DNA of 64,000 bases from the NCBI GenBank assembly GCA_030295235.1, contig AP026146.1, positions 248,001-312,000 of the forward strand, in the 5' to 3' direction. The position numbers and the translations under genes are program-made. Below the pieces are notes generated by a model. The model was not told the origin of the DNA. It made no database searches and saw only the letters and a program-made list of their open reading frames with translations. Position 1 is the first letter of the stretch. Each line of letters opens with the position of its first letter. Source of the stretch: Fistulifera solaris. Taxonomy: Eukaryota > Bacillariophyta > Bacillariophyceae > Naviculales > Stauroneidaceae. Below, one piece after another: positions 11,897 to 32,083 of the stretch.

Positions 11897-14716
11897 TCAT
11901 GTGTTCACAATCAACAGGTTCAACTCAACCTGGGTACCTTTGTTTCCCTGATTAGTACTTGACGGCAGCGGCGTACCTTTGATCTTTACTGACGCATAAC
12001 TAAGGAAAGAATTGCTTGTCTGGAACGGGGGAACTTTATCCCAAATCGTATTTGATCCACCTCCACCATTATTCGAAACCACTAGCGAAACACTTCCAAC
12101 TGGCCCATTCGCCGTTGAAATAATAGCCTGGACTTTTAGATCTGTGCCGTACGTCACGGTGCTGATCGTTTGACCTTCCGTAAGAGAAGCTATCAGGACA
12201 GTACCCAGCCCGTCAACAAGCGACCAACCAGTGATCGTGCCGACAGGACCCGGTGTCGTGGGCGCAGCAGTTAGAAATGTAGTTGGATCCACAGTTGGAA
12301 GTGGAGACGAAGTTGTCTTGACGGATGGAGGCGAAGTCGGATCCGCAGATGGAGACGAAGGCGGACCCGCAGATGGAGACGGAGTCGGACTCATAGATGG
12401 AGGGTTGACAGGGACTACGACTGGACTTGGAACGGGCACAAATACAGGACTCGGAACGGGCACAAATACAGGACTTGGAACGGGCACAAATACAGGACTC
12501 GGAACTGGGTTTGGAGCCAAAACGGGGCTTGTTACCGGAGCAAGAACAGGAGCATTAGTCGGTGATGAAGTCGGGCTCGTTGTGGGGCTTCGTGTTGGAC
12601 TTTCTGTAAGAGCGCGCGATGGGGCTTCAGTAGGACGTTGTGTTTGTGATTGTGTTGGATTGTCTGTTGTCGCAATCGTCGTTGGACTTGGAGGAGAAAT
12701 AGTGCCTGGCGACGACACAGGACTGGCAACTGTTGGGCTAACAACTGTCGGCGGGACGACAGGTGAGGTCGGTCCCGTTCCTGTAGGAAATGATGGCCCT
12801 GTCGGCGCACTTCCTGTAGGGAATGATTGACTTGCCGGTGCATTTCCTGTAGGGAATGATTGACCTGCCGGCGCACTTCCTGTAGGGAATGGTTGACTTG
12901 TCGGCATTGATTGTCCTGTAGGCACAGACGGAACGACCATTGTCATTGAAGGCCTAGGGGTCGCCGCGGTGGCCGTCGGACTAAAGCCGAACGTGTTTGT
13001 TGGACTTGCAGTAGTTCCCGCAAATGGTGTTTGAATGTCACTCCCTGTCGTAGGTGCTGGAACAAGAACAAAACCACCCGTAGGAGTATTTGTAAACATA
13101 GCAATTGGCGACGTCATTGTTTGAGGACTTGCCAAGGGGAATCCAAATGTAGGCGATAAGACCGGGAACGGGGCCAAACCTGGCGATACTATGGGGCTTC
13201 CAGGTAAAGCACTTGTTGGGACACCGATGTTTCCTGGTACTGTTGGAATAGGAGCCGTAACGGGAGACGGAATACCGCCGAAGGAGGGCTTGTTCGTGGG
13301 TGGCTCGGATGCTGGAAAAGATAGCGGCGATCGGCTGGGTAATATATCGTAGCTTAGATCATCGCCGGGCGAGGGCGTGGGCTCCAATCCAAGGGAGCCC
13401 AAATCTTCAACGAACGATTCTGGAGAAACCGAAGGAGCAATACCAGAAGCCAAGTCGAGAGTATCGAACTTGTACGCAACGAGTTCGTTCTCCGCGAAAA
13501 CCGGCTTCGGGACGTTGATCTTCATCTCTTCCTCTGCCATGTAGCTTCCCAACGTCGCTCCTCCAAGACCTCCTGCTGCTATGATGGAGCCAATCGCTAC
13601 CCCCACAGCAAACTTGGCACTCATGGTGGCGGCAGCAGCTGCTCCTCCCGCCGCAACGGCAGTGGCACCACCGGCAGTAGCTCCAGCGGATGCGGCTACT
13701 GTGATTGTTGCTGCCCCTTGTCCCACAGAAGCACCCGCGGTCTGTGCTGCTTGAATCATGGCTTGTTTCATTACTTGTGCGCTGAAACAGTTGAAAATCG
13801 AAAGTTAGCGAATGAACAAATAATATCATTGTCGATGTTACATCACAAATCACTTACGTTACATCCTGCTGAACCACGAAAGCGCCCGTCATATTGCGTG
13901 ATGACTCGTGCGCTCCCGCTTGTGCGAAACTGGAAAAATCACCTCCGCGATTCAACATGCCGTGTTGTAGATTCCCACTGCGGTTTACCATGACGTGAGC
14001 CGCCGCTGCATCTTCCACAACATCCTCCTCGTTATTTTGATTGTTAAGAAGTCGTTTTCCCAATCGCATCAACGGATCCATGGCGAAATACATGCCGCCT
14101 TGTAGCATAAGTCCGTACCCCATTTGTTTTACAAATTGCCGAGTCGGGTCCTCCTCTTCCTCCTCTCCCTTCTTCGGCGGACTCCCTAGACTACCCCCGG
14201 AGCCGTTCGCGTTCGTCGCATCTACTAACATAGGAATGTCCTCCAGAGACATGGAATTTTCCATCCGAGCGGTTTTTCCGAGCGCATCATGAGAATGCGA
14301 CATGGATGCTTCGCTTGTAAACGATTCAAAAGAGCCATCCCACAAGTCGCCAGCGGATTTATTGAGTGCACTGCAAAAATGAAAATAGTATGAAGCAAAG
14401 AGCAAAGTGAGGAAAACGTTGCGGTTGCAAATTTAATACCGTGAAGCCGCGAATGAAAGGCCTCTTTCCCGGTGAATAGACTCCGTATTATAGATAATCC
14501 TGCTACTTACGAGAAGGAAATCATACCGTCCGGTAGGTCGGAATAGGCATCCATAAACGAAGGGTCTTCGTCTCCTTCACTAAGATGCATGCTTTCGCTG
14601 GAGAGGGTATCCTGATTGTCTTTGGCATCATAAAACTTCCCGTCCGGGTGCAACGGCAACTCTCTGGATTCGTTATTCGCATCGAAAACGGTCACCGACT
14701 CGGCAAATCCGACCAT
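11897..14716 (-). CDS. surface protein family member 1: cytosolic N-terminus, membrane span, PST-rich stalk, beta-sandwich-like domain
   Basis: Three exons: 14511-14716, 13858-14370 and 11897-13781, with introns of 140 and 76 nt (GTAAGT donors, both phase 2), giving 867 residues. There is no N-terminal signal peptide. Exon 1 encodes MVGFAESVTVFDANNE and a conserved LHPDGKFYD box. Exon 2 encodes an acidic region and DPTRQFVKQMGYGLMLQGG. Exon 3 begins VMKQAMIQAAQTAGASVGQG, runs into an Ala/Gly-rich segment and a membrane span (FAVGVAIGSIIAAGGLGGA), then about 450 residues rich in Pro, Ser and Thr. The last 110 residues (TGWSLVDG...LTEGQTIS...VGSVSLVVSNNGGG) resemble the beta-sandwich repeat seen in bacterial secreted proteins. 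Likely a cell-surface or wall protein with extracellular C-terminus. Function is not known. The start is chosen as the second Met, to match both paralogues. Confidence 0.8.
12425..12498. repeat. three 24-base tandem repeats in the stalk of surface gene 1
   Basis: Three near-identical 24-base units encode PSPVFVPV on the minus strand in the stalk of surface gene 1. A second set, with 33-36-base units encoding PTGQSFPTG-type peptides, lies at about 12780-12905. Both keep the frame. Confidence 0.85.
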
Positions 14717-16044
14717 GGTCACCCAATAGACAGAAAAATTGAACAGATATGGAGGCTCGAATGCGTTTTCAGGGTCAACACTCTAATCGGGGATCTATTT
14801 TTATTTTGGTGTTTCTCTATCCGTCTCGTCCCAGTCGAGGGAAGAAAAAAAAGTTGTTTGTTGCGTTCATTTGGCGGATGGAGAAAATTGCAGGGCCTAT
14901 CGCTTCGTTAATTGCTCTTTTTCGTCCGTTTACACTAGTACTGAAAGAATTTTTAGTTTCGCTTGAAGTGCCAGCTTCACGTTTAGCACTTAATTGATTG
15001 AGGAAACGAAAGACACCCAACACTGAAACGCGACGCTTCTTGCCATAGTGGTTAGTTCGGGGTAGATTTAAGACGATTCCACCTGATTTCTACTATCTCT
15101 TTGGATGTAGCAAACGATCACGTTTTGGTCGTAAAACAAATCCGCTACGATAGTTCTTTGTACCTCATGTATGACTTTCGTCTTTCGTCTGAAAGGGCAC
15201 TATAATTGTTAAGTACAGTACGTAATCATCTAACTCGTGGAAATTTGTACCAGCTCCACGTTCAGAACTTTAACCAGTACCTCTATTCATTGATCGGGCA
15301 GCACCTTGACAAAACAATAACAAAAAAGACTCGATGATGTGATTTGGATCTTTGCATGGCAGAAGCGTGCATTTCATCGAATATGCTCGTCGACGAGCGA
15401 TATCTTCTTTTAACACCATCAGATGAGACCACTCGAACTATGGGTAAGAGTCCGGCATCGAACGAGGGTCTAAGGGAGACATCATCAAATAAATGAAGTG
15501 CTCCATCATGCTGCTCATGAGCAAATGATGATTCGGTTATTACGCGTCACCTGACTGACAGCAAAATACTCTATTCACTACTGTCTCTCTGTAATGACAA
15601 ACGAAACTTTTAGAGACCACGGGCCCATTGGATTCTTCAGCTGTGGCAAGGTAGAAAAGGAGCATCCTCGTTGTTAATTGTCAAAAAATGAATTACCACA
15701 GAGAAAGAAAACATTGCATCAATTCGAACAAAAAGTTATTTGATTTACCCTGAGCGAGAACGCGATTGCGCAGGAAAGCTGAATTGATCGACAGAACAAG
15801 GTGCAAAGCTGGCAACTGATAAAACGAGAGTGACTCGCCCAATCGTCTTATGACGAGCCCCCTTATCCGAGAAATTCGACCGCACCTTATGAATCGATTT
15901 TGCAATAAAGCTCAAACATTAAATTTGACACGACCGCTCGGATGCAATTGACCATTAAGCAGTTGGCTCTACATTGTTATGAACACGATCGAGTGTCTCC
16001 TCTTTCTTGTGGATTTCGAAGGAACATCCACACCAAGATAAAAT
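14717..16044. other. intergenic region between the two tandem surface genes
   Basis: A 1.3-kb gap holding the promoter of surface gene 1 and the 3' flank of surface gene 2. The plus-strand frame at 14749-14997 and the minus-strand frame at 15693-15905 have no family motif or spliced partner. I found no tRNA or transposon signature. Confidence 0.45.
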
Positions 16045-19000
16045 TTAGGATATTGTGCCAATGATCGACAAATTCAGTCGAACTTCAACACCCTTGTTGC
16101 CCTGATTACTGTTAGATGGAAGCGGAATCGCCTTGATGCTGACAGATGAATATCGGAGGAATCGATTGTCCGTTTCAAAAACCGGACCAGGTCTGCTCCA
16201 TATCGACGAAGATCCACCGCCGTTATTGTTATCGATGTCAAAGGTTACGCTGTTGACAGGGCCCCATATTGTTAAGTAGAGGGCTCGGACTCTGAGGTTC
16301 GTCCCATATACAGCTGTATTGATGGTTTGTCCCTGGAACAAAAATGGAATCAGAACATTTCCTCCCCCCATCGACAAGCGAAAAGCCAATGATGGAGCCA
16401 ACTGGTCCCGTGCCAACAGGTGACGGGGCCACGGGCGTCGGCTGTGGAGCAATTGGTACTGGAGCAACAACAGGCGATGGCGCAACAGGGACCGGCTGTA
16501 ACTCAGTAGGAACAGGAACGACAACGGGTGCGACCGTCGGATTGTCAGTTGGGCCTTTTGTAGGTATAGACGTAGGCATTGAGCTCGGCCTGGAACTCGG
16601 AACAGAAGTGGGATAACCAGTTGTCCCAGACGGATTACTAGTCGGGTCATTTGTGGGCAAAGAGGTCGGACCTGGACTTGGAACCGAACTTGGATGATCC
16701 GTAGGGACTGTTAATGGGTTAACTGGCGGTATACTGACTGGCGTTAGCATGGGACTGCCTGTTGTCGCTGGTGGTCTCAGTAAAGCAACACTTGGCACAG
16801 AACTGGGATGTTGCGACGCCGCAGATGGATTGCTAGTCGGGGTATTCGTGGGCAAAGAGGTCGGTATCACGGTCGGAACAACGCTCGGAGCAAAGCTCGG
16901 ATAGTCCGAAGGAACCAATGAGGGCATCTCGGATATCACTCCTACCGGGTTCATGTTTGGCACTCTGACTGGATTACCGGTAGTTGGCGAAGGACGTGGC
17001 ATAATTGTGGGTGAGGAACTGGGCAGAGAAATCGGCAGAGAGCCTGCATTGTCAGTCGTAGGCGCAAATGTGGGCTTTGAAGTTGGAGTCGAACTTGGAC
17101 TGTCGATATTTGAGTCATTGCTTGGCGATGTGGAGGGAAAACTAATGAAGGTCGTTGGACGCAAAGAAGCAGGTATCGATAGGCTTGGCTTAAAGCTTGG
17201 TACAGATGTTGGCTCATCCGCAACTACCGATGGTATGTTGGTGGGGCCGGTTGTTGCAAATAGGGGTGCCGAGCTTGGAATTGAGCTTGGACTGTCCGCT
17301 GTCGCCGTTGCTGGTGTTGGAAGAGCAGATGATGTTGACGGACGAACAGTGGGGATGAGACTTGGCGATGACAGGGGGCTGTTTGTAGCAGTTGGAATTT
17401 GAACCGGGCTTGAAATATTGGGCTCTAATGTTGGAGTCCCCGTAAACGTTCTTACTGGACTGTCGCCAGCAGTTGGAATTTGAACCGGGCTTGAAATATT
17501 GGGCTCTAATGTTGGAGTCCCCGTAAACGTACTTACTGGACTGTCGCCAAAGTTTATTGTTGGTGATTGCGTTGGCATAGCTGTTCTTGCTAATAAAATG
17601 GTGGAAGGACTAGAAGATGAGCCGACAATAGGGTTGGAGAGGGCTGGACTGTCCGTTGTCACAGCCCGACCAGTAGGCTCCAAAGTTCCAGTCGGGTCGG
17701 TGATCACAGCAACGGTCGGCAAAGTAGTCAGGATGCCTTTTAATATGGTCGGTGATGGCGTCAACGCAGGGTAAGGCACGAATTCTCCCGTCGGCTCGTT
17801 TGAAGACGTTGGAATGGGCGATGTTGACGGAATAAAACTAGCCAAATCGATGGGAATACCAATAGCTGGATGCTGAGTTGCTATTATCATTGCAGGATTT
17901 CCAGCCAACCCACCAACTGGGACTCCCGGACTACCTAATGTTGGCGCCATTACGGGTGATCCACTCGTGCTTGTAGTGGGTGTGGATACAGGGCTTAAGG
18001 GCAGTGGTCTAGTTGGATCAACGTGGTAGCCAAAATCCTTGTTTGGCGAGGATGTTGGTAGATTTCCGAGAGAATTCCACGATTCTGGAGAAACCGTAGG
18101 GGCAATAGCTGCTGCCAGGTCAAGAGTGTCAAATCCGTACGAAGCTAGCTCTTGCTTAGCAAAGACGGGCGTCGAAACGTCGACGTTTAACTCCTTCTCT
18201 CCCATATAGCTTCCGAGCGTCGCTCCTCCCAGACCTCCCACTGCGATGATAGAGCCAACCGCTACCCCAATGGCAAACTTGGCACTCATAGTGGCGGCAG
18301 CAGCTGCTCCTCCAGCCGCAACAGCAGTGGCACCACCAGCAGCTGCTCCAGCAGATGCTGCTACTGTCATCGTTGCTGCTCCCTGTCCCACGGACGCTCC
18401 TGCTGACTGGGCAGCCTGAATCATGGCTTGCTTCATTACCTTTGTCCTGGAGAAAAAGAAGTTGAAAGTCAGTCAAAGCAGACTCAGACTGCTTTTGCTT
18501 GATGCTTCACTCAGCGAACAACTTACGTTACATCTTGTTGGAGCACAAACGCTCCCGTCATATTGCGGGATGACTCGTGGGCGCTTGCATGTGCGAAATT
18601 GGAAAAATCACCCGCGCGGGTCGTCATATTGTGTTGCAATTGTCCGCTTCGGTTCATTATCATCTGAGCTGCCGCTGCATCCTCCAGAATATCCTCTTCG
18701 TTTTCGTCACTGCTAAAGAGCCGTTTTCCAATTTTTATCAATGGATTTATCGCGAATTGCAACCCGCCCTGGAGCATGAGTCCATATCCCATCTGCTTTA
18801 CGAATTGGCGAGTCGGATCCTCCTCTGGTTCATCCTCTTCCTTCTTCGGTGCACTGCTTATACTATCGCTCGAACCGTTTGCGTTACTCGCAGCTACCAA
18901 GTTGGGAAGGTCCTCGAGTGTCATAGAATTTTCCATTGGAACAGGTTTTGACTCGATTGTCGTATCCTGGAACTGCGACATCGAAGCATTTCCGTCACCG

Positions 19001-19407
19001 CCGAATTCAAAGGAATCATCCCACAAGTCGTTAACGGATGTGTTGAGTGTGCTGTGACAGAGAAATGAATCCGTGCAGTCATAAGTTAACACCGCAATCA
19101 GCAAAAGGGAGAGACATAACTTCGATATTAGCATGGCACTACATCGCGCAAATTGAGAGCTCCGCGACTTCAATACTTACGACAACGAAATCATGTTATT
19201 GGAAAGATTACCGATCGGCATGGTAGAGAACGCATCTATAAATTCAGTTTCATCGTCGGCTTCACTCAGATGCAAACTTTCGTTTCCAAGAATGTCGCTT
19301 TCTTGGTCGTCCTGCGCATCATAAAATTTGCCATCGGGATGAAGCCTTAACTCCCTGGACTCATTGTTCGCGTCAAAGACGGTAACAGAGTCGGAAAATC
19401 CGACCAT
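16045..19407 (-). CDS. surface protein family member 2 (tandem paralogue, one frame break)
   Basis: Exons 19181-19407, 18527-19051 and 16045-18446; introns of 129 nt (19052-19180) and 80 nt (18447-18526), both phase 2 with GTAAGT donors, at the same places as in member 1. The N-terminus (MVGFSDSVTVFDANNESREL, LHPDGKFYD), the DPTRQFVKQMGYGLMLQGG block and the Ala/Gly-rich membrane region with VMKQAMIQAAQSAGASVGQG are nearly identical to member 1. The stalk is longer (about 600 residues) and differs in sequence. One C-terminal domain follows (IIGFSLVDGG...FLFQGQTINTAVYG). A run of six C at 16364-16369 has one base too many; removing it joins the two halves and gives 1050 residues. The paralogues arose by tandem duplication and have diverged mostly in the stalk. 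Confidence 0.8.
17388..17549. repeat. 81-base tandem duplication in the stalk of surface gene 2
   Basis: Two adjacent 81-base copies (17388-17468 and 17469-17549) differ at only a few bases. Each encodes 27 residues beginning GDSPV and ending PVQIPTA, so the frame is kept. Confidence 0.9.
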
Positions 19408-20761
19408 GGCGGCGTTGCTTGTTGTTGCTTAACAATCGTTTGCTTGGACAAAATAGTCTTGTTGTGATCGTTGTTTGTTGGTTTCGCAATGGCTTTCGTG
19501 TTCTTGCTTTTTGAAGTTCATTATTAAAGGCCCAAACGAAATCGAAATACACATTATCCTAGATTACACCACCGGCAAGAACTATGATTCATTAGATTGT
19601 GTACCCTACTGGTTGGTGAAAGTACTAATAAAGCTGTTTTCCAGTATTGTGTTTTTACTGAGTTTTAACTACGTTTCGGAGTATGTTATACGAAGCTGAC
19701 TGTGAATTATTTTCCTTGGTCTTGGTCAATAGTCAAGAGTTAAGAAGAATATCATCAAGAATCATCATTTGAGTCCGGAGGATTCATGAGTCATGAGGAG
19801 ACGATATGCATCGAATGAAAACGAGTAGTCCGAAGTCCGAAGATTAGCTCTAGCTAAGGGATTAGATGATGACAATTTCTAGACAGTTGTGGTTTAAAAT
19901 AGAATTTCAAAGAAGAAGAGACGACTGGTGCGCAAAATAAACTTAATCGGATCCTATATTGAATTGCGTCTCCTGGTTAGCAACGCCTTCGTGTTGTTGC
20001 ACGACAATGGAAACTACAGCATTTGTCCTTTCATCAGAAAGAAGATTGAAGACTTATCAAACCTCCTGGCTGTTCTTTAAGCTATTGAGTACGATGTAAC
20101 ATAATCAAATGACATTTTTAAGACGGAGTATGGTTAATCCTTAGCTGACTCGTGTACTTTTTGCTCTTTGGTGTAGTTCATTCAAACATCACCCTCTGTA
20201 ATCATTTGTTCAACGTACGAAGTGAAGTTTTGCAACCACCATAGCTGTGCTGCCAGAATAGCAAGAAGGTTCCGTTGTCATTAGTGTTTTGGTCGACGGC
20301 AACAAGTACAGACGAGAGAAAGTCTCCCTGCTTGGTCTTGATGACTGATGAGTGATGATGACCGATGTGTGATACTCCGAGCCTTCCGTACTACTTCGAT
20401 AAACAATGTAACCTTAACCCTAACACGTCAGATAAGCGGGAACGGAAGCGGCAAACGCGAACAAAAAAAAATCGACGATGGCACTTTGGCCCAAACTCCG
20501 ATTAAGAAAACGACCGAAAATCTCTTTCACTATAGCCTAGAAAGTGCAGTTCTCATGCCTCGATCTTTGGGGTGCTTTTTGACACGAGAAATGCCACGAG
20601 CAATCAGCCCATCAACACTCAACTCTCTGCTCGTGGATTTTTTATTCTTTACTCGGAACTATCTCATTGTTTTTCCAAACAAAGATAAGCAAACAGAACA
20701 CTCCTGAAGGATCATTTCTTGCGTCAAGCGAAATCGCCTACTTCATACAATCAAGTCAAAT
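19408..20761. other. intergenic region
   Basis: Divergent promoter region between surface gene 2 and the small secreted-protein gene. It includes the GAGTCATGA-type motif near 19790 and the repeat AGTCCGAAGTCCGAAG near 19829. A 119-codon frame at 20348-20707 lacks any motif and is not annotated. Confidence 0.45.
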
Positions 20762-20968
20762 ATGTACCGTCAATTCCCCGTCTTCCTCACCGTCATCGTT
20801 ATGCTCTTTGCCGCTGTGAGTTCCTTTGGCGGACGAGGCAAACAAGCCGTTACCTCCCATGGATCAGGCCTTCACGGGCATCGTCTGCTGAATCATCTTT
20901 TCGACATCGGCGAGAATCCCAACGAAGATATCCGGACCAATGTCTTTTTGGCCATGGAAGGTCTTTAA
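20762..20968 (+). CDS. small secreted protein, unknown function
   Basis: A 68-residue frame with a clear signal peptide, MYRQFPVFLTVIVMLFAAVS, followed by a polar mature part of about 45 residues containing GGRGKQAVTSHGSGLHGHR and an acidic end (DIGENPNEDIRTNVFLAMEGL). It has no Cys, so it is not a disulfide-rich peptide. A second, shorter overlapping frame (20719-21009) is a shadow. It lies between surface gene 2 and HSP90, on the opposite strand to both. Not recognised. The support is the signal peptide alone, so it may be a short secreted peptide or an N-terminal exon. Confidence 0.45.
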   Translation: MYRQFPVFLTVIVMLFAAVSSFGGRGKQAVTSHGSGLHGHRLLNHLFDIGENPNEDIRTNVFLAMEGL

Positions 20969-21482
20969 GAAGAAGAAGCGTAAATGAACATCGACGCACA
21001 CACTTTTGAAACAAAACGAACGAGAAAAGGGAACAATGTATTATTACTACATAGACAACAAATAGTGTTGCGACCAAAGAACGCAACCAGAACAATTCAT
21101 TTATAATAGATCTTTTTTAACCCCGAAGCTTCGCACAATCTTCTGTTTGTTCTCTCCTTGTATCGACTTCTTATTGGCTTAAGCTCTGTAAAAAGCCTTT
21201 ATTTACTGAAATCATTCAGTCGATTTCTTCCTTCAGAACACATCAACGGTCAGATTTTGCGATTCATCTCGTCTGGTACTCGTCGCGGTCACCTTTTGCT
21301 AGGGAGAGAAAGAGATTTCTCCAGACGAAGTAGATAAAATCAAGCATTTCGCAAAAGTTAGCTCAGCTACGGGTAATAGAATGGCTACAGCTTACTATAA
21401 TGATAGCTGGTAGAGCCTAGGCAAATGCATTATAAATCATTTCTCTACTGTATCCTACATTCTCTTTGTCTATAACTCCGCT
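20969..21482. other. intergenic region (convergent 3' ends)
   Basis: Lies between the ends of the small secreted-protein gene and HSP90. A/T-rich sequence with no structured element that I can see. Confidence 0.5.
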
Positions 21483-23785
21483 TCACGCGACAACTTCGGC
21501 ATCTTTTGCTTCGGCCGCATCACCGTCGTCATCTGACTTCTTATTTTCCACCACAACATCCTGAACCGTCGAAACGACCTTTTCGTTCATGAGTCTCATC
21601 ACCCGCGATGCAAAACTCCTCATGTCGGATACATCGTAGCCGCTTGTCATAGAGGCCACATCGTACATAAGTAAGGCGAAGTTCTTCAGCTCCTCCGAAT
21701 CCTTGTCGCCCTTTACCATGCGTTCCAGGTCCTGCACAATGGGATGGTTGGGGTTGATCTCGAGAACGGCTTTGTTCATCGCATCGATGCCATTGACGTC
21801 ACCACCGGAAGAAACAGCTTGTGCACGCATGTAGCGTTGCATTGTTGGACTCATTCCGTAAGCACCTTGCACCAAGGCGGCAGGTGAATTCGTCAACAAA
21901 TTGGAAACTTCCACTTTTTGGACCTTGTCTTTTAATAACACTTCCAAATATTCGACAACGGGCTTCAACTCTTCCTTAAGTGTTTCCTTTTTCTTCTTGG
22001 TTTCTTCGTCTTCGTCTAGCTTCAAATTCTCTTTGGCGGCATCCACAATGTCCTTTTCCTTATAACTGCGCAAGCTCTCCATCATAATTTCATCCAAAGG
22101 TTCGGTAGCGAAAAGGACATCATAGCCGCGTGATGCCAGCTTCTCAATGACCGGCGACATGGCGGCTCCGTCGCGGCCGTCTCCGGTAACAAAGTAAATA
22201 TTCTTTTGGTCCTCTGCCATATTTTCTACGTACTTATCCAAAGAGGTGTACTCTTCGCCCGATTTGCTGGAAAAGAATCGCAGCAACGGTGCGATTTCTT
22301 TGCGGTTGGCATCGTCTTCTACAACCCCCACCTTGAGATATTTGCCAAAGTTATTCCAGAACATAATGTACTTGGTCGTGTCTTCATCGTCCGCGATCTC
22401 GCGCATCATATCGAGCGACTTGCGGACCAAGCGTTTGTTGATGATGGAAAGTACCTTGGACTTTTGCAGAATCTCTCGACTCACGTTCAGTGGAAGATCA
22501 TTGCTATCTACAACACCGCGAACGAACTTGAGCCAGCGAGGCATCAACTCGTCGAACTTATCGTTGATAAAGACACGCTTAACATAGAGTCGAATGTTTC
22601 GAGCGTTTTCGTCAAACATGTCGCGCGACAATTCAAACGGCAGCATGCCTGGAATGTACAACAACGCCTTGCATTCCACTTGGCCCTCGAGCGAAAAATG
22701 GGTCCATTTCATTGGGTCGTCATAAGCGGCACGGAACGAAGTTTTATAAAACGACTTGTATTCGTCCTCTGTGACGTCTTTTGTGGGTCTCAGCCAGATG
22801 GGTTTTTGCGTGTTGACCAACTCATATCCTTGTTGGGTCACCGGAACCGTCTTCATTTTGGGCTCTTCACCTTCCTTTAGATCCTTGTTGGCTTCTTCAT
22901 CGGGTACTTTCTTGTACTCGGTCTTTTCCTTCCAAACAGAGATGGGAAATTCAATGAATTCAGAGTACCGCTGCAGTAGCTCTTCAATCTTGGCTGACTC
23001 GACGTACTCCACCGCCTCATCTTTCAAATGCAGAATCAATTGAGTACCCGCTCCACTTTCAAACGTCACCGAATCATCTTCTTCGATCGTATAACTACTA
23101 TCTGCTGTGGAGCTCCATCGATATTGTTTAGATCCTTCTTGCATGGATTTCGTTACGACTTCCACCTTGTTGGCGACCAAATAAGCCGAATAAAATCCGA
23201 CACCAAACTGCCCAATGAGGCCTAAATCCGCGGAACCATCCCCCAAGGCATCCATGAAGGCACGAGTACCCGATTGCGCGATGCGACCCAAGTTGTTGAT
23301 CAATTCCTCTTTGGTCATGCCGACACCACTGTCTTGGATGATCAGCGTGTTGTTTTCAGGATCGGCTTTGATCTGAATGGACGGCGTGACCGACTCGCCT
23401 TCGGTCAGCGACAAAAATCGGCGTTTGTCACAAGCATCGGCGGCATTGGAAACGAGTTCTCGCAAAAAGATATCCTTGTCACTGTACAAAGAATTGATGA
23501 TGAGATCCATCACCCGGCCGACGTCACTCTGTCATACAAACGAAGAGACAAGAAAACAATGAGTTTATGCACAGCATAAAATGAATCAACATTCACGCAG
23601 TCTGGACTTACGGTAAATTCATACGTCTCCTTTTCTTTTTCGGCCACTGTGCTCATGAATCTTCTGGTGGTAGTAGTGGTCGGCACACTCACGCCGAAGG
23701 ACGGCGTACGCATTTGCGAAGGAATAAACGCCGAGCATCCGGCGGCTGCCATCAAGAGAGCTACTGATCGAGTTGTGAACTTCAT
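21483..23785 (-). CDS. HSP90, plastid-targeted
   Basis: ATP-dependent chaperone. Exon 1 is 23612-23785 (58 residues) and exon 2 is 21483-23528; the 83-nt intron (GTAAGT...ACAG) is in phase 0, giving 739 residues. Exon 1 supplies a signal peptide ending GCSA before FIPS, the diatom plastid motif, then a Thr/Arg-rich transit segment. The ATPase domain shows LRELVSNAADACDK (catalytic Glu and ADP-binding Asn), DSGVGMTKEELINNLG, the lid GTRAFMDAL, and FGVGFYSAYLVA. The middle domain has SREILQKSKVLSIINKRLV. The C-terminus ends AEVVA, so it lacks both the cytosolic MEEVD and an ER retention signal, which supports an organelle form (HSP90C-like). Mitochondrial TRAP1 is less likely because of the signal peptide. 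Confidence 0.93.
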
Positions 23786-24242
23786 AATGCTAGGAACGAA
23801 CGAATGAAAAAGTTAAAGTGATTCGAATGGTTTTCAGCGCTGTTTCAGAGAAGAAATAATGAAACATCGAAAAACGTGTTGCGTCGTTTTGATGGCCTGG
23901 AGAGTGGAAGAAAGCTGACGAGAGGACGCCGTAGATAATCACGCCTAGACTTCTACGGAGCAATAATTGCGTCAGGGACGAAAACAGACGGGAACGATTG
24001 TACAATTTTACACCAATGAAAAAAGTCATGACACGTGGAACGTCCCAAACGGTTTGTTGTTGAGATTTATTGTTGACTCGTGATGATAATGTTTTTCAGC
24101 GACACCTAGACAAGTCTAGAAAATGGCTAACTTGAGCAGCGTCTGCAAGCTAGTTCCCGATGATGGTTCTCCTCGCCGGAAACTCTTGCAAAATTGTTTT
24201 CATTTATCTTACTATAGACCCAAAATGTCGGAGCCTTTTCAT

Positions 24243-24264
24243 CACGACTGCATTTCAGTCATGA
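24243..24264 (+). repeat. CACGACTG/TTTCAGTCATGA motif, copy 1
   Basis: CACGACTG followed directly by CATTTCAGTCATGA. GACTG and CAGTC form a five-base inverted repeat with a five-base loop. Related copies lie at 24447-24468, 59006-59027 and, with the second half inverted, at 33983-34004. Confidence 0.6.
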
Positions 24265-24446
24265 ATCATGATTTTTCAGCCAAGCCTGCTACTGGTACCT
24301 ATTTGTAGAAGTGCAAATGGCAAATGCTCTATTCACGATATTCTTACCTTCAAATATGTCGGCAATGAACACCTCTATTCTTTTGCCGAACATTCTCCGA
24401 ATAGTTGTATGCCAGAAATACTATAGACCCAACGTGGGATCTAGGC

Positions 24447-24468
24447 CACGACTGCGTTTCAGTCATGA
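24447..24468 (+). repeat. CACGACTG/TTTCAGTCATGA motif, copy 2
   Basis: CACGACTG followed by CGTTTCAGTCATGA; one base differs from copy 1 about 200 bases upstream. It belongs to the duplicated block that starts with ACTATAGACCC. Confidence 0.6.
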
Positions 24469-24777
24469 ATCCAGATTCACGGTCAAACCTTATTACAATT
24501 AAGATCACAGTATCTTTCCTCCATGACACGTGGAACGTCCAAGACGGTGTTCGTACGTTTTGTTTTGATTGCCATGTACGATGCATTTTTGTTTCAGCGA
24601 CACGAGAATCAATCAAAGAAAGACATCCTTTTGATCCATTGCCTCGGCAAACTCTCTCTAGAATTAACTCTCACCTAACACCACCGTGACGGAAAAAGCC
24701 TTACCAACAGATTTAATTGCTAGCTGACGAGTTCATTTCCCCGTGACTTCCACCCATTCCACAACAGACAAGTACAA

Positions 24778-25662
24778 ATGCCACGAGGAAGTGAAGCCAA
24801 GTTGCGTCGGCGCAATCAACGCAAAGACGAAGATAAGCAGGATTTGAACGCCATTTTCGGTGATCCGAATGGAAAAGAAACGGATGATATTCCCTTACCG
24901 CCCCGCATGAAGAATGCGGGCGTAGCGCCAGTCGACGACGACTCGGAGGAAGAAGCACCGGCCATGCCCAAGAAGAAAAAGGGCAAAGCCGTTCCTGTTG
25001 GACCACCTCCATCATCCAAAGGTGGAATCAAACGGGCGCCTCTGATTATGCTTATCTTAATGACGGGGACCACGTTGCTACCCGCTTTGTTGTACGCGGG
25101 TGATTTCCTGAGTTCGTTCTTGGCGAAATCCAACATCACGGGTGGACTGGGCTATCGCATGGGCATCGGACACGTTCCTCGCAAGCGTGTGTTATCATTT
25201 TATGAGAAACATGCACCGGAAAAAGTCAATGATGTTCCACATATTTTGTCGAAATATTATGGCGATTACCCCAAATTGATCAAGAATTTGGAACGAAAGT
25301 ATCAAGATTACGGTTATTTCATGGGGTGGGAAGAAGACGAAGCACCCATGAAACTCATGACGGAATATTTGAACGACATTTACAGTATGTGGATCAAACA
25401 ATGGAACAAACACGCGCCACAAGTCTTGAAAACAGCGGCACGGAATGCCAAGTACAATATCACGACCGTGTACAAGAAAGGACGGAAGGTTTGGAAAGCG
25501 AAAGTATGGCCCATGTTGGAGCCCATCTTTGGTGTGCCCGATGGTGCTGATAAACAAAAACGGCAAGATGCGGCCGAGGCTCGAAAGCGCCGCAAGTCGG
25601 AGGGTGGTTCCAAACCACGACGTAAGAATCGAGAGTTCCGAGATGATGTCGATGAATCTTAG
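24778..25662 (+). CDS. single-pass membrane protein, unknown function
   Basis: A 294-residue single-exon protein. Residues 1-85 are charged and likely cytosolic (SEAKLRRRNQRKDEDKQ, acidic DDDSEEEAP, and basic PKKKKGKA). Residues 86-108 form one membrane span (APLIMLILMTGTTLLPALLYAG). The remainder holds a globular part with GLGYRMGIGHVPRKRVLSFY, ILSKYYGDYPKLIKNLERKY and several Trp residues (MWIKQWNK), then a strongly basic tail (RKRRKSEGGSKPRRKN). One NIT and one NIT-T sequon lie after the span. The Tyr-rich KYYGDYPKLIKNLERKYQDYG segment looks like a conserved helical module, but I cannot name a family. It diverges from HSP90. Confidence 0.65.
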   Translation: MPRGSEAKLRRRNQRKDEDKQDLNAIFGDPNGKETDDIPLPPRMKNAGVAPVDDDSEEEAPAMPKKKKGKAVPVGPPPSSKGGIKRAPLIMLILMTGTTLLPALLYAGDFLSSFLAKSNITGGLGYRMGIGHVPRKRVLSFYEKHAPEKVNDVPHILSKYYGDYPKLIKNLERKYQDYGYFMGWEEDEAPMKLMTEYLNDIYSMWIKQWNKHAPQVLKTAARNAKYNITTVYKKGRKVWKAKVWPMLEPIFGVPDGADKQKRQDAAEARKRRKSEGGSKPRRKNREFRDDVDES

Positions 25663-25833
25663 AATCGAATGCATATTCACATATAAAACCTATTTAAATA
25701 TACATGCATATCGTCTATATATTGCATGTTGGATTATTTGTCATAGTTTTTGGTTTGGGTTCATGATGATGCTGTATCAAGATGATATGACGTTGTCGAT
25801 TTTATTGCGGTGTACATTAGTACAAAGTCATGT

Positions 25834-26859
25834 TCATCGCCGTTTTGTTTCTTCGTGGCGTTGTATTAGTAGACGCTTGATGTTATCATAAAGAGGTAAA
25901 TAGATACAAACAAACGGGACAATCCATGATATCCGCGCTTCCATGCCACTGAAAAGTCCTTCCACACCATGAGATTCGAGTGTATGCATAGCACAGTCCC
26001 AGTAATTGTAGGTTTCCTCGGAAGTCATCAATTTTGTTTTGATGGTGTCCATCGGAGTGGTAAGAAACGCAGCTATGGCGCCCGTGATAGAGGCAGCCCC
26101 TACTTCACGCAGCGTGGACTTCTTCTCATTGTCAAAAGCCTTTTTCAACAGTTCGTAAACGCCCAATTCCAGCATGGTATAAGGAACATCACGGTAACAA
26201 GTCGCATCATAACCGACAAAGAACCCCTCGACCCCCGCCATTCCGGCAATTCCTTGCACCGCCGCCGAAAAATCTGGATACAAGCCCATCTGCAGTTGTT
26301 GTTTCACAAGTTCTCCAGGAACCAGGAACAGGGAAGACGATAAAAACGCAATGCCCGCTCCCACAAACAAAACAGTGGAAGGCATGGCCCGTTTCCACCA
26401 TTCCCACGTGGCGAATTTGGCGGCACCGGCCAACGCATCGGAGCCCGCGTACACCAAAAAGCCGTGATAGAAGCCCGACAGTCCAGAGGTCGCCCACAAG
26501 TACTGTGCCGCGTCCCCCACATTTTTGTGCAAACCCAATTCCCAGCCCAAGTCCGATTGCTGCAATGTTTTGATGCAATCCATCGGATGAATCATCACGT
26601 CCGCCACAAACGTCGTCACGGCTCCCGCGAGTGCCAACTGCACGAGAGGTACAGTCGGTACGAAAGCAGTTGCTCCTTCTTGTGTTACCTTGGAATCACG
26701 ACTGCGTTTCCGAGACGTCACCACGGAAGAAAGTTCAGGTGGTGTCATGTTCAATTGACGACTCGAACACCGAGTGACGACTCCTCCTCGGAGCACTGCG
26801 AAGCTCACGGACGGATTACCGTGTTGAAGTAGCAAGAGAAGAAGAAGGTTGTATTTCAT
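25834..26859 (-). CDS. mitochondrial carrier family (SLC25) protein, possibly in the plastid envelope
   Basis: A 341-residue protein with three repeats of the carrier family, each starting with a PxD/ExxK-type signature: HPMDCIKTLQQS, VPGELVKQQLQM and TPMDTIKTKLMT. The repeats pair with GLSGFYHGFLVYAG, GVEGFFVGYDATCYRD and GVEGLFSGMEARISW. Carriers of this type, including S-adenosylmethionine transporters, exchange metabolites across organelle inner membranes. The N-terminus from Met at 26859 (MKYNLLLLLLLQHGNPSVS then FAVLRGG) looks like a signal peptide followed by Phe, so the plastid envelope is possible. The frame is open further upstream to 26955, but that start would hide the signal peptide. 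Single exon. Substrate is not deducible; the SAM carrier group is my best guess. Confidence 0.8.
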   Translation of the reverse strand: MKYNLLLLLLLQHGNPSVSFAVLRGGVVTRCSSRQLNMTPPELSSVVTSRKRSRDSKVTQEGATAFVPTVPLVQLALAGAVTTFVADVMIHPMDCIKTLQQSDLGWELGLHKNVGDAAQYLWATSGLSGFYHGFLVYAGSDALAGAAKFATWEWWKRAMPSTVLFVGAGIAFLSSSLFLVPGELVKQQLQMGLYPDFSAAVQGIAGMAGVEGFFVGYDATCYRDVPYTMLELGVYELLKKAFDNEKKSTLREVGAASITGAIAAFLTTPMDTIKTKLMTSEETYNYWDCAMHTLESHGVEGLFSGMEARISWIVPFVCIYLPLYDNIKRLLIQRHEETKRR

Positions 26860-27673
26860 GGTATTTGTTGTCAATATTGGATCTTTTCTTTGAGTTGCTT
26901 TTGACATTAATAATAATAAGAAGAAGTGAAGTTTTTCTCCTTTCTCATTGCTCATTGCCCATCAGAATTTAGGCTCCCAACAAAGTTCTTTCCTCTTCGC
27001 GTCTTTCTTCGCATCCGGGTGCCGCATGGCTTCGTAACGGTACCGACTTTGCTTTTTTGTCATCTCAAGGCAGTTGACAGTTTCGTTACGGATGAATGCA
27101 AGACGGGATGTCTGACCGGCGTCCGTCTTAAGACACATTCAACGAGTGCCGAGTGTCTTGAAGAATGAGTAGTTCTTGTCGAACAGCAAACTGTCCAACC
27201 TTATTCATCGCAGAGTACAGAAGTGTATGTGTTTGAATAAAATTTACCATAAATTGTAGTACAGTCCGCCGAATTTTCTTAAAGTATCCATTAAATGCGT
27301 GACAGGGGGTTAAATGAAAAAAAATGATGAAGGCAAATGGTTCATGGTTCCACATTGCCCAATTAGAGGGCTTTTTGTCAGTGGTTTTGCAAATTCCTGC
27401 GAAGTCTTGCTGTGAACGACGGAACCTCGAGCCAAAAGCTCGCATTCATTCAAAATCAATGAGGAAAAACTCACTCCAGCTCTTATTGTACTGTACTTGC
27501 AGCACAAAACCAATAAACGCAAAAACCAGGATTGAACAGAGCGCTGCATTGTGTTTTGTATTGATACCATAATCACCCTTTCTTGCGTTAACTCGAAAAG
27601 AATTTTCTTGCGGTTTTGAATGGAATGAACAGCAAGAGAGAGCTGCTGTAACAATTAATAGCCAACAATCAAA
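26860..27673. other. intergenic region
   Basis: Holds the divergent promoters of the SLC25 gene and surface gene 3. Overlapping frames on both strands at 27310-27682 include a hydrophobic one but share no motif with any neighbour and start at non-ATG codons. No gene is supported. Confidence 0.45.
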
Positions 27674-30600
27674 ATGGTTCAATTTGCTGATTCTGTCGTC
27701 ATTATACCGGACGGTTTAGATCCGTATACATTGCCCTTGCATCCCGACGGAACCTACGTGGACGGGAGCGAATCGCTGTCGGCTGAAAGCTTGGGCTTGG
27801 ATGGTCTCGACAATGATGCTTCCTTTCAAGATGCGATGCAAGGGGAAATGAGTATGGGCGATATGTACGTGAGAGAATCGAAATACTACCATTATTTGCA
27901 GCGAATGCAAAAAAAGTCTCACTCGATTGTTGTCCTAATTTTACAGCGGCGGCGATGCCATGGTGTTTTCCGACTCGTTTCTGACCGACGAGGACTTTAG
28001 TAGCATGAGTGATTCCGAAGCGACGCTCGAAAAGGAACCACCTTCCGATTACGACATTTTGAAACAAATGGGCACGAATGCCGCCCTTTCGGGGGCGATC
28101 GCCTTGGCGGCGCCGACACTGGTGAAGTATGGTGCGCGCTTGATGAATAGCTCGAATGAAGCCGAAGATGCGGCTTTGGATTCCGTGGCCTTGGCCAATT
28201 TGAGCAATTCGGCATCGTTTTCGCAGGGTGGCAACGCGACAGGTGCCTTTCCTGGATTTGGGGCCATTCCGGGTGGTGGCGCATTTCAAACGGGTGTTTC
28301 GTAAGTTACTTGTGGGTGATTGTTGGTGCACGCAATTCATTCGTGTGGCAACTCAACCTTTGCTCTTCATCTTTCATTAGAAAATCTGTGATGCAGCAAG
28401 CAATGCTTTTAGCGGCGAAATCCGCGTCCACCTCTGTTGGACAAGGTTCGACTGCCTTGACAACGGCAGCTAGTGGAAGTGGTGCTGTCGCTGGAACCGT
28501 CGGTGGTGCGGTAGGTGGAGCAGTCGGAGGAACCTTTGGAGCGTTGGGCATAGGCATGAATGTTTTAATTGTTACAGCAGTCGCAATGTCCCTGATAGGA
28601 GGTGTCATCGTAGGGCTGGAAACAGGAGGATTTCTTCGACCCGAAACGCGGGCGGATACCTTTGTTCCTCTCAATATCTCTCTCTTCGATTTCGAAGTCG
28701 TTTCTTCTCCGTCTGTGGTTCCGTCAACGGTTGACTTCATACTCCCAGCTCCATCTTTGGTTCCGTCACCCACGAAATCACAGTCACCGACTGGTTTGTC
28801 CTTTAATACCGAGAGCGAGTCTCCATCGACTATAACAGGCGACTTCCCTGTAAGCATATCAAGCTCTCCGTCTGGGTCTTCACGACCCACTGGACTTTCG
28901 GGCGGGAGCTTTTCACCAACACCGAGTCCAAGTCTTTCTCGTTCGGAGTTGAGCCCGGAACCAACTCGTTTTTCACCATCACCAGTATCTGCGTCACAAA
29001 GTCCGCTACCATCCCAGACTGGACTCACTGTGTTTCCATCCACAAAACAGAGTGGGACTACATTTCCAACAGAAGGTCCAACCATATCACAGAGCGGTAC
29101 CTTAATCCCAACCGCAGCCCAGGGTGACACCGCATTTCCAACAGAAGCTTCAACTACACTGCAGAGTGGTACCGCAATTCCATCAGCAGCTCAGACTGGA
29201 ACTGAAGCGCCTTTGCTCCTTTCTCCAGAACCAACGGCCTCCCCGAATGGACGCTCGTCTCCCGTTCCTAGTGGCCTCGATGACTCTCTAGCTCCTACTG
29301 AACAGCCGACGGGTATTGCTATTGGTGTTCCATCGAACGGACCTAGCACGCTACCTGACGGCGCTACGGCCCCCCATCAATCATTGCCGCTCCATCTCCT
29401 ATACCAACTACCGTTGTCACTGATGGACCGTCTTCGTTTACTTCCCCGAGCCCGACATTGGAGCCAACTCTAGAGCCGACACCCCAAGAGTCTTTTTTTC
29501 GCGCCAACTGCGGTGCCATCTTTCAGCCAACCATCGAGTTCGCCGGTCGACCCAAATGCCCCATCAGCTTCGCCGACGATTTCATGGATGCCTGCGGCGA
29601 CTATGTTCCCTTCTGGCGAGCCGTCAACGACAACAAGTCCGAGTGTTGCTCCTAGTTTCATTTCTTCCGCCGCGCCATCTGGGCGCCCTACGGGCCTCCC
29701 CACTGTTTTACCGACGGACAGTCCAACGATGACACCTACATTCGAGCCAACAAATACGCCGACGGACAATCCAACGACTGAACCTACGTCTGAACCAACG
29801 AACACGCCGACGGATAGTCCAACGACTGGACCTACGTTTGTACCAACAAGTTCGCCAACGGACAGTCCAACGACGGATCCTACGTTTGAACCAACAAGGA
29901 CACCGACGGATAGTCCTTCTGTGCAACCTTCCCGTGTAGGACAGGTTGGCAGCATTACCGGGTGGCGTTTGGTATCGTTAAATACTAACACGCCTCTCGC
30001 AAACCTAACAGAAGGTCAATTGATTAATTTATGCGATTTCGAAACAAATGTCACAGTACAAGCGATAACGAGTGACAATCCAGGCGAAAACGTCGGAGCA
30101 ATCGAGTTCAAATTGCGAAATGTTTTCAGTCAAGCAAATCCCGAACGCGTTTATGACAACGAATTCCCTTTTGTCATTGGGAACTTGGCCAATTATTGGG
30201 CTTTTACGCAAATCAATGCCATCCCGTTCCCGAATCCACGTAATAATGGGGGAAGAGGTGCGGAAGTTATATTCAGGCTTTGGATCAATAAGGAATGCTC
30301 GCCACCAACTGGCAGTCCAACTCCCTTACCCTCGCCTGGACCAATGATCGCACCCTTTGAGAACCCAACTACATTCCCATCGGCTGGACCAATAATCGCA
30401 CCCACTGAGAGCCCAACTACATTTCCCTCGCCAGGGCCAACGATCGCACTCACTGAGAGACCAGCTACATTCCCATCGGCTGGACCAATAATCGCACCCA
30501 CTGATAGTCCAACTGCATTCCCCTCGCCAGGGCCAACGATCGCTCCCACTGAGAGACCAACTACATTCCCCTCGCCTGGACCAACAAGTGTTCCTACCGA

Positions 30601-32083
30601 TGCACCGATTATCCAGCCTCCCACTATAGGACCTGTTGGCAGCATCTCCTACTGGCAGTTGGTTTCGCTAGATACAAACACGGTCATAACAAGATTACAA
30701 GATGGACAATTTATTGATCTGTGCAATTTTGGTGGACCTGTTACGGTACAAGCGGTAACACAGGGCACTGTCGGAGCAATAGAGTTCACTTTGCAAGATA
30801 GCTCGAGTCAAGATTTCGCACGCCTCTATGACAACACGACTCCGTTTGTCATTGGAGCTCTGGATAATTATTGGAGTTACACTGAAATTTATCCTATGTT
30901 GTTCCCAAGCGCAGACAATTTTGACGGTGCCGGTGAGGATGTTCCTTTGCGTCTCTGGATAAGTAAATGTTTGCCGACAGAGCAACCCGTCAATGTTCCT
31001 GTGGCTCCTCCGACGGATTCACCCGTTGAAGTGGTGCCTGTTCAGCCACCAATAGCACCACCAGTACCAACACCGACCGCGCCTACCAATCCAGGACCTG
31101 TTGGCAAAATTTTAGAATGGCGACTGGTATCGCTTTATACGAGCACAGTCAGGGTACCCTTAATAAATGGTACACTCGTTAATCTGTGTGATTATGCAGA
31201 AGATGTCACGGTACAAGCAATAACAGATGACCAGATTAAAGCCATCGAATTCCAAGTAAGAAATGGCGATGGGGGTGGATCACGACGCGTCTACGATAAT
31301 GAATTTCCATTTATCATTGGGGATACGTACCAGGGTTGGGAATCGGTAGAAATCAAAGCGACTCCGTTCCCGAGTGCAGATAACCTTGGTGGTAGAGGTG
31401 AAGAAGTTCTATTCGTTTTACGATTCAACTTTGTCTGCTTGCCAGTAGAGCCACCTGTTCAGCCGCCGGTTGAGCCACCTGTTGAACCTCCAGTTCAGCC
31501 GCCGCTTGAGCCACCTGTTGAACCTCCAGTTCAGCCGCCGCTTGAGCCACCTGTTGAACCTCCAGTTCAGCCGCCGGTGGAGCCACCTGTTGATCCTCCA
31601 GTTCAGCCGCCGGTAGAACCACCAGTAGAGCCACCTGTCCAGCCGCCAGTAGACCCACCTGTTCAGCCACCAATGAAACCACCGGTCCAGCCACCGGTCG
31701 GACCTCCTGCTGGTTCTGTTGGCAGTATTGTAGGATGGCAATTGGTATCATTAGACACCAGCACAGCTATCAAGAACTTGGAATACGGTGATACGGTTTA
31801 TTTGTGCAATGACACAAGAAATCTGACGGTACAAGCAGTACCTGAGGGCCTTGTTGAAGCAATTGTGTTCACAGTGAGAAATTACTGGGGCGGCGGTTCT
31901 AAGCGCATCGATGACGAGGTGTCTCCTTTCCGCATTGATGATGCGTATCGCGACAATCGGGGTGAAGCATGGAGACGTGTAATAATCAATGCAATTCCGT
32001 TTCCGAGTTCAATCAGCAATGGCCGCAGAGGTGTTCAAGTTCAATTGGGACTGTGGTTTGATCAAGGATGCCAGACCAACTAA
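27674..32083 (+). CDS. surface protein family member 3 with four beta-sandwich-like domains (two compensating frame breaks)
   Basis: Exons 27674-27864, 27947-28300 and 28381-32083; introns 82 and 80 nt with donors GTACGT and GTAAGT, both phase 2 like the paralogues. The product is 1415 residues. The N-terminus MVQFADSVVIIPDG with LPLHPDGTYVDG and the membrane region VMQQAMLLAAKSASTSVGQG place it in the family, though it is the most diverged. The stalk has TDSPTT repeats (29700-29935). Four copies of the C-terminal domain follow (29943-30300, 30640-30970, 31105-31440, 31716-32083), each starting GxVGxIxxWxLVSLxT and containing VTVQA, AIEF and a Gly-rich EVxxxLW end. Linkers are PSPGPTIAPTE-type and PPVEPPVQPP-type. 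One C is missing at 29370-29375 and one extra T is present at 29493-29499; between them about 40 residues are out of frame, and an apparent TAG falls at 29471. Confidence 0.8.
29700..29935. repeat. TDSPTT-type repeats in surface gene 3
   Basis: Several degenerate 48-base units encode peptides such as TNTPTDSPTTEPTFEP. They form the upper stalk before the first beta-sandwich-like domain. Confidence 0.8.
30301..30620. repeat. PSPGPTIAPTE-type repeats in surface gene 3
   Basis: At least six 48-base units alternate PSAGPIIAPTESPTTF and PSPGPTIALTERPATF types. They link domain copies 1 and 2. Confidence 0.85.
31441..31710. repeat. PPVEPPVQPP repeats in surface gene 3
   Basis: A run of 12-base units encoding PPVE, PPVQ, PPVD or PPLE makes a stiff Pro-rich linker between domain copies 3 and 4. 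Unlike the other linkers it contains almost no Ser or Thr, so it is a poor O-glycosylation substrate. Confidence 0.85.

What the first reader, a model, noticed from the sequence alone, without database searches (positions are those of the whole stretch)
11897..32083. Three-member surface-protein family with an unusual no-signal-peptide, type II-like layout
Three genes share a conserved cytosolic N-terminus with an LHPDG box, two phase-2 introns at matching places, a VMxQAM...SVGQG motif leading into an Ala/Gly-rich membrane region, a Pro/Ser/Thr stalk, and C-terminal beta-sandwich-like domains. I know of no described diatom family with this exact order. It looks like a diatom-specific membrane-tethered adhesin or wall linker, built from a eukaryotic tether and a domain that I otherwise associate with bacterial secreted proteins.
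Basis: partly seen in the sequence, partly recalled or inferred. Interest (0 to 1): 0.8.

Follow-up and report, generated by a model that had tools for sequence, protein, structure and literature searches.

The report
Fistulifera surface proteins with bacterial domains
Three neighbouring genes in a small oil-producing diatom encode long membrane proteins that seem to start inside the cell, cross the membrane, and carry outside a long stalk tipped with a domain of bacterial type, so they are probably adhesins or cell-wall tethers, though nobody has yet located or tested them.

Summary
Genes A, B (minus) and C (plus) share three exons, two phase-2 GT-AG introns, LHPDG, KQMG and VM[KQ]QAM...SVGQG motifs, a membrane segment, a Pro/Ser/Thr stalk and one (A, B) or four (C) C-terminal domains; no hydrophobic N-terminus. 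Added here: (1) The genome is Fistulifera solaris; each gene has a homeolog on contig C34, and four module searches find only these six genes. (2) The domain, an Ig/FnIII-like sandwich by prediction, is homologous to a domain of bacterial secreted-type proteins: bacterial HMM to gene C E 7e-18, diatom HMM to bacteria E 5e-25, 0 of 1206 controls. Of 10 such bacterial proteins scanned, 4 carry carbohydrate-binding-type modules. (3) The N-terminal part matched only one F. solaris protein, so a diatom-wide family is not shown. (4) Inner part and membrane segment are most constrained (dN/dS 0.03-0.19), the A stalk 0.36, domains 0.08-0.41. Against simple integrity: four of the six genes carry a frame break in this assembly; public intact copies exist for two. 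Best reading: a type II surface adhesin/wall tether; location and ligand are inferred.

The parts
11897..14716 (-). Gene A: exons 14716-14511, 14370-13858, 13781-11897 (867 aa), intact
   Evidence: open frame across two GT-AG phase-2 introns; intact homeolog on C34
16045..19407 (-). Gene B: exons 19407-19181, 19051-18527, 18446-16045; frame broken at G run 16364-16369; an intact copy is P0001, FisN_15Lh252 (1050 aa)
27674..32083 (+). Gene C: exons 27674-27864, 27947-28300, 28381-32083; frame broken at 29370-29375 and 29493-29499; homeolog open at those places
14639..14653 (-). LHPDG box, gene A (B 19330-19344 -, C 27737-27751 +)
14112..14150 (-). DPTRQFVKQMGYG, gene A exon 2 (B 18781-18819 -; C has DILKQMG 28053-28073 +)
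13878..13895 (-). N[MA]TGAF, a sequon kept in A, B (18547-18564 -) and C (28233-28250 +) and in the three homeologs
13550..13612 (-). Membrane segment, gene A
   Evidence: hydropathy, place
18215..18277 (-). Membrane segment, gene B
28559..28618 (+). Membrane segment, gene C
12245..13519 (-). Pro/Ser/Thr stalk, gene A
   Evidence: P+S+T 53% over 400 residues
16421..18190 (-). Pro/Ser/Thr stalk, gene B
   Evidence: 604 residues, P+S+T 50%, measured on P0001
28658..29947 (+). Pro/Ser/Thr stalk, gene C (contains the two frame breaks)
   Evidence: P+S+T 56% over 429 residues of P0002, a copy 98% identical to the C34 homeolog
11900..12244 (-). Bacterial-type Ig-like domain, gene A
   Evidence: bacterial HMM E 2.3e-4 on the ORF
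16048..16402 (-). Bacterial-type Ig-like domain, gene B (frame break inside)
   Evidence: bacterial HMM E 6.4e-3 on the downstream piece, 1.7e-4 on the homeolog
29948..30301 (+). Domain D1, gene C
30635..30970 (+). Domain D2, gene C
31103..31441 (+). Domain D3, gene C; the modelled domain (31091-31441)
   Evidence: AlphaFold2 mean pLDDT 85.9, pTM 0.76
31715..32071 (+). Domain D4, gene C

Best explanation
A lineage-restricted family of type II cell-surface proteins. The acidic N-terminal 240-300 residues (net charge -22 in A and C) stay in the cytosol; an internal Gly/Ala-rich membrane region acts as signal-anchor; a 400-600-residue Pro/Ser/Thr stalk, probably O-glycosylated, reaches outward through or along the thin silica wall; and one or four Ig-like domains of bacterial type at the tip bind wall or mucilage polysaccharide (or a partner surface), tethering the plasma membrane to its coat. 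Shown: gene structure, family size in this genome, no hydrophobic N-terminus, domain homology, relative constraint. Inferred: membrane side, glycosylation, location, ligand, adhesive role.
For: Layout and introns. No N-terminal hydrophobic stretch; one best membrane segment; net charge of the 15 residues before and after it +1/-1 in A and 0/-1 in C. All four domains of C have a Cys at the LC motif and one at the end, while A and B lack both, as expected of a disulphide in an oxidising compartment. Domain homologous to a bacterial one; of 10 bacterial host proteins scanned (of 41 ORFs holding it), 4 carry carbohydrate-binding-type modules (malectin; CBM6/CBM35; CBM96; F5/8C), others collagen-binding or PKD domains, and 2 a Por_Secre sorting tail above cut-off. 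dN/dS: exons 1-2 0.03-0.14, membrane segment 0.03-0.19, A stalk 0.36, domains of A and B 0.14 and 0.08, C D1-D3 0.17, 0.31, 0.41: inner half and single tip domains are kept, stalk and repeated domains vary.
Against: No localisation, expression or binding data were seen. NxS/T sequons sit mostly in the N-terminal part of A (5 of 5) and B (9 of 13), and N[MA]TGAF just before the membrane region is kept in all six genes, which would suit a lumenal N-terminal loop; the C type differs (3 in exons 1-2; 7 in the outer part of P0002). The membrane segments of A and B are only moderately hydrophobic (a recalled free-energy scale gives sums above zero for all three genes). Bacterial Ig-like domains are often mere spacers (recalled), so the tip need not bind anything. 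Four of the six genes carry a frame break in this assembly.
Confidence: 0.5

Rival explanations
1. Silica-wall protein: the C-terminal part faces the lumen of the silica deposition vesicle and ends up bound to the frustule, like the silicalemma-associated proteins but in opposite orientation.
For: A conserved cytosolic segment plus a low-complexity lumenal region is the SAP logic (PMC5647440, passages). Some frustulins of this species also have proline-rich linkers (PMC4712521, passages).
Against: No hydrophobic N-terminus; no named family matched; the stalk is Pro/Ser/Thr-rich rather than Ser-rich; the domain's bacterial relatives sit in secreted-type proteins.
Confidence: 0.2
2. Different topology: the Gly/Ala-rich stretch forms a hairpin, or the KQMG helix is also in the membrane, so the stalk is not simply outside an N-in protein (three segments, or an intracellular stalk).
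For: A further Gly/Ala-rich stretch before the main segment (means 1.31-1.37 in the three genes) and a KQMG stretch with mean 0.67-1.30; Gly-zipper spacing in C; conserved sequon N[MA]TGAF before it.
Against: Those stretches are less hydrophobic than the main segment in each gene; the paired cysteines and the domain's bacterial company favour a C-terminus outside.
Confidence: 0.2
3. Decaying genes or assembly artefacts: B and C and their homeologs are broken, so much of the family is relic sequence.
For: Frame breaks in B and C of the window and in both homeologs, B in the stalk and C inside D4: 4 of 6 genes.
Against: The breaks lie at different places in the two subgenomes, those in the window are in homopolymer runs, public intact copies exist of B (P0001) and of the C34 type of C (P0002), A and its homeolog are intact, and dN/dS is below 0.42 in all 15 regions measured.
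Confidence: 0.07

Closest known systems
Unnamed domain of bacterial secreted-type proteins, bordering Pfam Big_7 (PF17957)
   Same: Homologous over about 100 residues (hhalign probability 97.7%, E 1.7e-12 in a one-to-one comparison); same core pattern of L..., L..G..inL, A.t, vgsv.F, dn..PF
   Different: Diatom copies lack the WTP..G loop and the copies of C add a Cys pair; no window domain hits Big_7, and 1 of 6 bacterial copies scanned reaches its cut-off (24.3 against 24.1 bits)
Diatom adhesive trail proteins acquired from bacteria (CaTrailin4, Ca5609 of Craspedostauros australis; Zackova Suchanova et al. 2023)
   Same: Diatom extracellular proteins acquired from bacteria according to the paper's title (seen in reference lists; paper not held)
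   Different: About 900 kDa and above 1 MDa (PMC11420354 passage); the present proteins have 867 (A) and 1050 (B) residues. Sequences were not compared
Silicalemma-associated proteins (SAPs), Thalassiosira pseudonana
   Same: Single membrane segment, low-complexity lumenal part, conserved cytosolic part (PMC5647440 passages)
   Different: SAPs have a signal peptide and the opposite orientation (N lumenal, C cytosolic) and a Ser-rich region; sequences were not compared
Mucin-like protein CaFAP1
   Same: Mucin-like surface protein of a raphid diatom (PMC11420354 passage)
   Different: Sequence not compared

Membership tests
Bacterial Ig-like domain of the L024-L058 type | HMM built from bacterial copies alone recognises it | tested here: met
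   whole-ORF E 6.9e-18 (C, four domains), 1.2e-19 (C homeolog), 2.3e-4 (A), 1.3e-4 (A homeolog), 1.7e-4 (B homeolog), 6.4e-3 (broken B piece); single domains are weaker (3e-5 to 0.1 in C); no other of 1098 ORFs listed at E up to 10; 0 of 1206 shuffled or reversed controls
Bacterial Ig-like domain of the L024-L058 type | Reciprocal recognition | tested here: met
   diatom HMM (11 copies) finds 30 of 1198 ORFs, in 26 of 35 bacterial loci (best 5.4e-25, weakest 4.3e-3); 9 loci missed
Pfam Big_7 (PF17957) | Score above the Pfam cut-off | tested here: not met
   no hit for the window domains, for whole A, P0001 or P0002, or in the genome
Ig/FnIII-like beta-sandwich fold | Seven to eight strands, structural match to known sandwiches | tested here: inconclusive
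Silicalemma-associated proteins | Signal peptide, N-terminus lumenal | tested here: not met
   no hydrophobic N-terminus (hydropathy only, no SignalP); definition from PMC5647440
Frustulins | Pre-sequence and acidic cysteine-rich domains with Cys hexapeptides | tested here: not met
   no hydrophobic N-terminus; no Cys at all in A or B (C not checked for the motif); definition from PMC4712521
Diatom-wide protein family | N-terminal modules present in other diatoms | tested here: inconclusive
   1 protein (F. solaris P0001) at E up to 1 among 3631 candidates of 5.8 billion; the search also failed to list A and the A and B homeologs of this species
Diatom adhesive trail proteins acquired from bacteria | Shared sequence or domains with CaTrailin4 or Ca5609 | not tested
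   sequences and paper not held
Adhesin | Located at the cell surface and needed for attachment | not testable with these tools
   needs tagging and knock-out

The most novel reading that the evidence does not exclude
These proteins are the missing membrane-spanning link of the diatom adhesion-motility complex in Fistulifera: the conserved acidic inner part couples to raphe actomyosin and the bacterial-type tip grips the extruded mucilage, so a bacterial domain was recruited into a eukaryotic traction machine.
Probability: 0.05. Interest if true: 0.85.

Novelty: new variant of a known kind. Interest (0 to 1): 0.45.

Why it matters
[quoted passage not shown] A small family with a conserved inner half and a bacterial-type outer tip gives a concrete, taggable candidate for a membrane-to-coat link, in a species in which GFP fusions work (PMC4712521 passages), and would be a further instance of bacterial surface domains being taken over by diatoms.

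Tried and rejected
Scan of genome contigs (84,980 prokaryote species) with close diatom copies: 40 stretches matched, none a relative; a probe based on the bacterial form succeeded. tblastn of domain D1 against plasmids: none. PDB by sequence with domain D4: nothing below E 0.8. The four-domain protein search was capped (7996 candidates scored) and listed 105 proteins, but an HMM of the domain finds it in only 3 of the 106 proteins held, P0001-P0003; I take the other 103 as Pro-rich linker matches. The first N-terminal search was also capped, so it was repeated without the Ala-rich part. Exon 2 model was useless (mean pLDDT 48.8). Own-genome search with bacterial domain L034 gave one weak hit, the B homeolog (E 0.2); Big_7 none. 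Structure library: no Foldseek match below 0.001. Pfam: one search covered ten pieces; whole A, P0001 and P0002 were scanned later, the only match a sub-cut-off 'PT disordered repeat' in P0002, so no LRR, receptor or enzyme family. Paper searches whose listed titles and abstract openings named no such family: (open-licence PMC only, 0 to 15 papers listed each, most lists cut; six papers opened at passages: PMC7335047, PMC11420354, PMC12803021, PMC12159174, PMC5647440, PMC4712521).

dN/dS was not computed for the stalks of B and C or for D4 of C; 15 regions are measured.
Full report
What was checked. The window is contig C35:248001-312000 of a 51.7 Mb, 61-contig genome. Protein P0001, the nearest database match, is named 'hypothetical protein FisN_15Lh252 [Fistulifera solaris]' and reads as gene B. 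A published F. solaris assembly is listed with 62 sequences and 52 Mb, and Fistulifera is called allopolyploid (PMC12159174, passages). So I take the organism as F. solaris.

Gene structure. Genes A, B and C each have three exons and two phase-2 introns with GT..AG ends. A and B lie in tandem on the minus strand; C starts about 8 kb further on the plus strand. Each has a homeolog on contig C34 in the same order and orientation, with the same exon layout. Four module searches of the genome, with exon 2 of A, the membrane part of A, exon 1 of C and domain D4 of C, list only these six genes (6, 6, 6 and 13 matches; the tool scores only the best candidates).

Frame breaks. In the window, B is broken in a G run inside its domain and C in a C run and a T run in its stalk. 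Of the homeologs, A's is open from VM to its stop (589 aa), B's breaks in the stalk (507 aa open) and C's inside D4 (1126 aa open). So 4 of 6 genes are broken in this assembly, at different places. Public intact copies exist for B (P0001) and for the C34 type of C (P0002, 98% identical). I read the breaks mainly as assembly or sequencing slips, because dN/dS between homeologs is 0.03-0.41 in the 15 regions measured (my own counting script). The stalks of B and C and D4 of C were not measured.

Membrane layout. The first 60 residues have no hydrophobic stretch (best 19-residue means -0.14, -0.27, 0.78), and the best segments are FAVGVAIGSIIAAGGLGGATL in A, its counterpart in B, and one around NVLIVTAVAMSLIGGVIVGL in C. 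Charges favour N-in weakly. A further Gly/Ala-rich stretch precedes it, so a hairpin cannot be excluded. Against the simple type II reading, sequons cluster in the N-terminal part of A (5 of 5) and B (9 of 13) and N[MA]TGAF is kept in all six genes. For it, the outer part of P0002 has 7 sequons against 3 in exons 1-2 of C, and all four domains of C carry a Cys pair that A and B lack together.

Distribution. With the Ala-rich part left out, residues 1-258 of A match only P0001 at E up to 1 among 3631 candidates from 5.8 billion proteins. The same search did not list A itself or the homeologs of A and B, so it does not hold or reach even all family members of this species, and its silence on other diatoms is weak. 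P0003, of unnamed origin, is 89% identical to C, so a close relative outside this genome has the C-terminal part. A diatom-wide family is not shown; restriction to Fistulifera is the simplest present reading. Whether the domain came from bacteria by transfer, or is older in eukaryotes, was not tested.

Mechanism. Exons 1-2 and the membrane segment are most constrained (dN/dS 0.03-0.19); the single domains of A and B are nearly as constrained (0.14, 0.08), C D1-D3 less (0.17, 0.31, 0.41), and the stalk of A is at 0.36. This fits an inner half with fixed partners and a tip that matters in A and B, joined by a stalk whose exact sequence matters less; it does not fit a wholly free outer half. With 400-600 stalk residues, the tip could stand of the order of 100 nm out (inference). 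I hold a membrane-to-wall or membrane-to-mucilage tether with an adhesive tip as most likely (0.5); the silica-vesicle and alternative-topology readings follow.

Comparison. SAPs have a signal peptide and the opposite orientation (PMC5647440 passages). Frustulins have a pre-sequence and cysteine-rich domains (PMC4712521 passages). The trail proteins of Craspedostauros acquired from bacteria (known here only from reference lists and a passage in PMC11420354) suggest that diatoms do recruit bacterial surface domains. The adhesion-motility model needs a membrane-spanning link (PMC11420354 passages); the present family is a possible candidate, but its apparent restriction to one genus argues against a general role. 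None of the papers listed in ten searches is, by title and abstract opening, about this family; the lists were cut and the library is open-licence PMC only.

Noticed in passing
11897-32083 and C34:232500-254500 (L022, L023): Frame breaks in four of the six family genes, at different places in the two subgenomes; those in the window are in homopolymer runs.
   Followed up: partly
21486-23513 (-): An HSP90 open frame lies between genes B and C (Pfam HSP90, E 1.8e-178).
   Followed up: partly
32455-33420 (-) and 34420-35214 (+): Two nucleotide-sugar transporter open frames (Pfam Nuc_sug_transp, E 5e-28 and 1e-26) lie in opposite directions next to gene C; possibly a duplicated pair.
   Followed up: partly
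L024-L058: The bacterial domain found in 35 loci of many phyla is barely covered by Pfam (1 of 6 scanned copies just passes Big_7) and would merit a family of its own.
   Followed up: partly
29948-31441: D1, D2 and D3 of gene C diverge between homeologs very unevenly (91%, 78% and 59% identity), which may reflect gene conversion or relaxed constraint.
   Followed up: no
13878-13895 (-), 18547-18564 (-), 28233-28250 (+): The N[MA]TGAF sequon before the membrane region is kept in all six genes although the N-terminal part should be cytosolic; unexplained.
   Followed up: no
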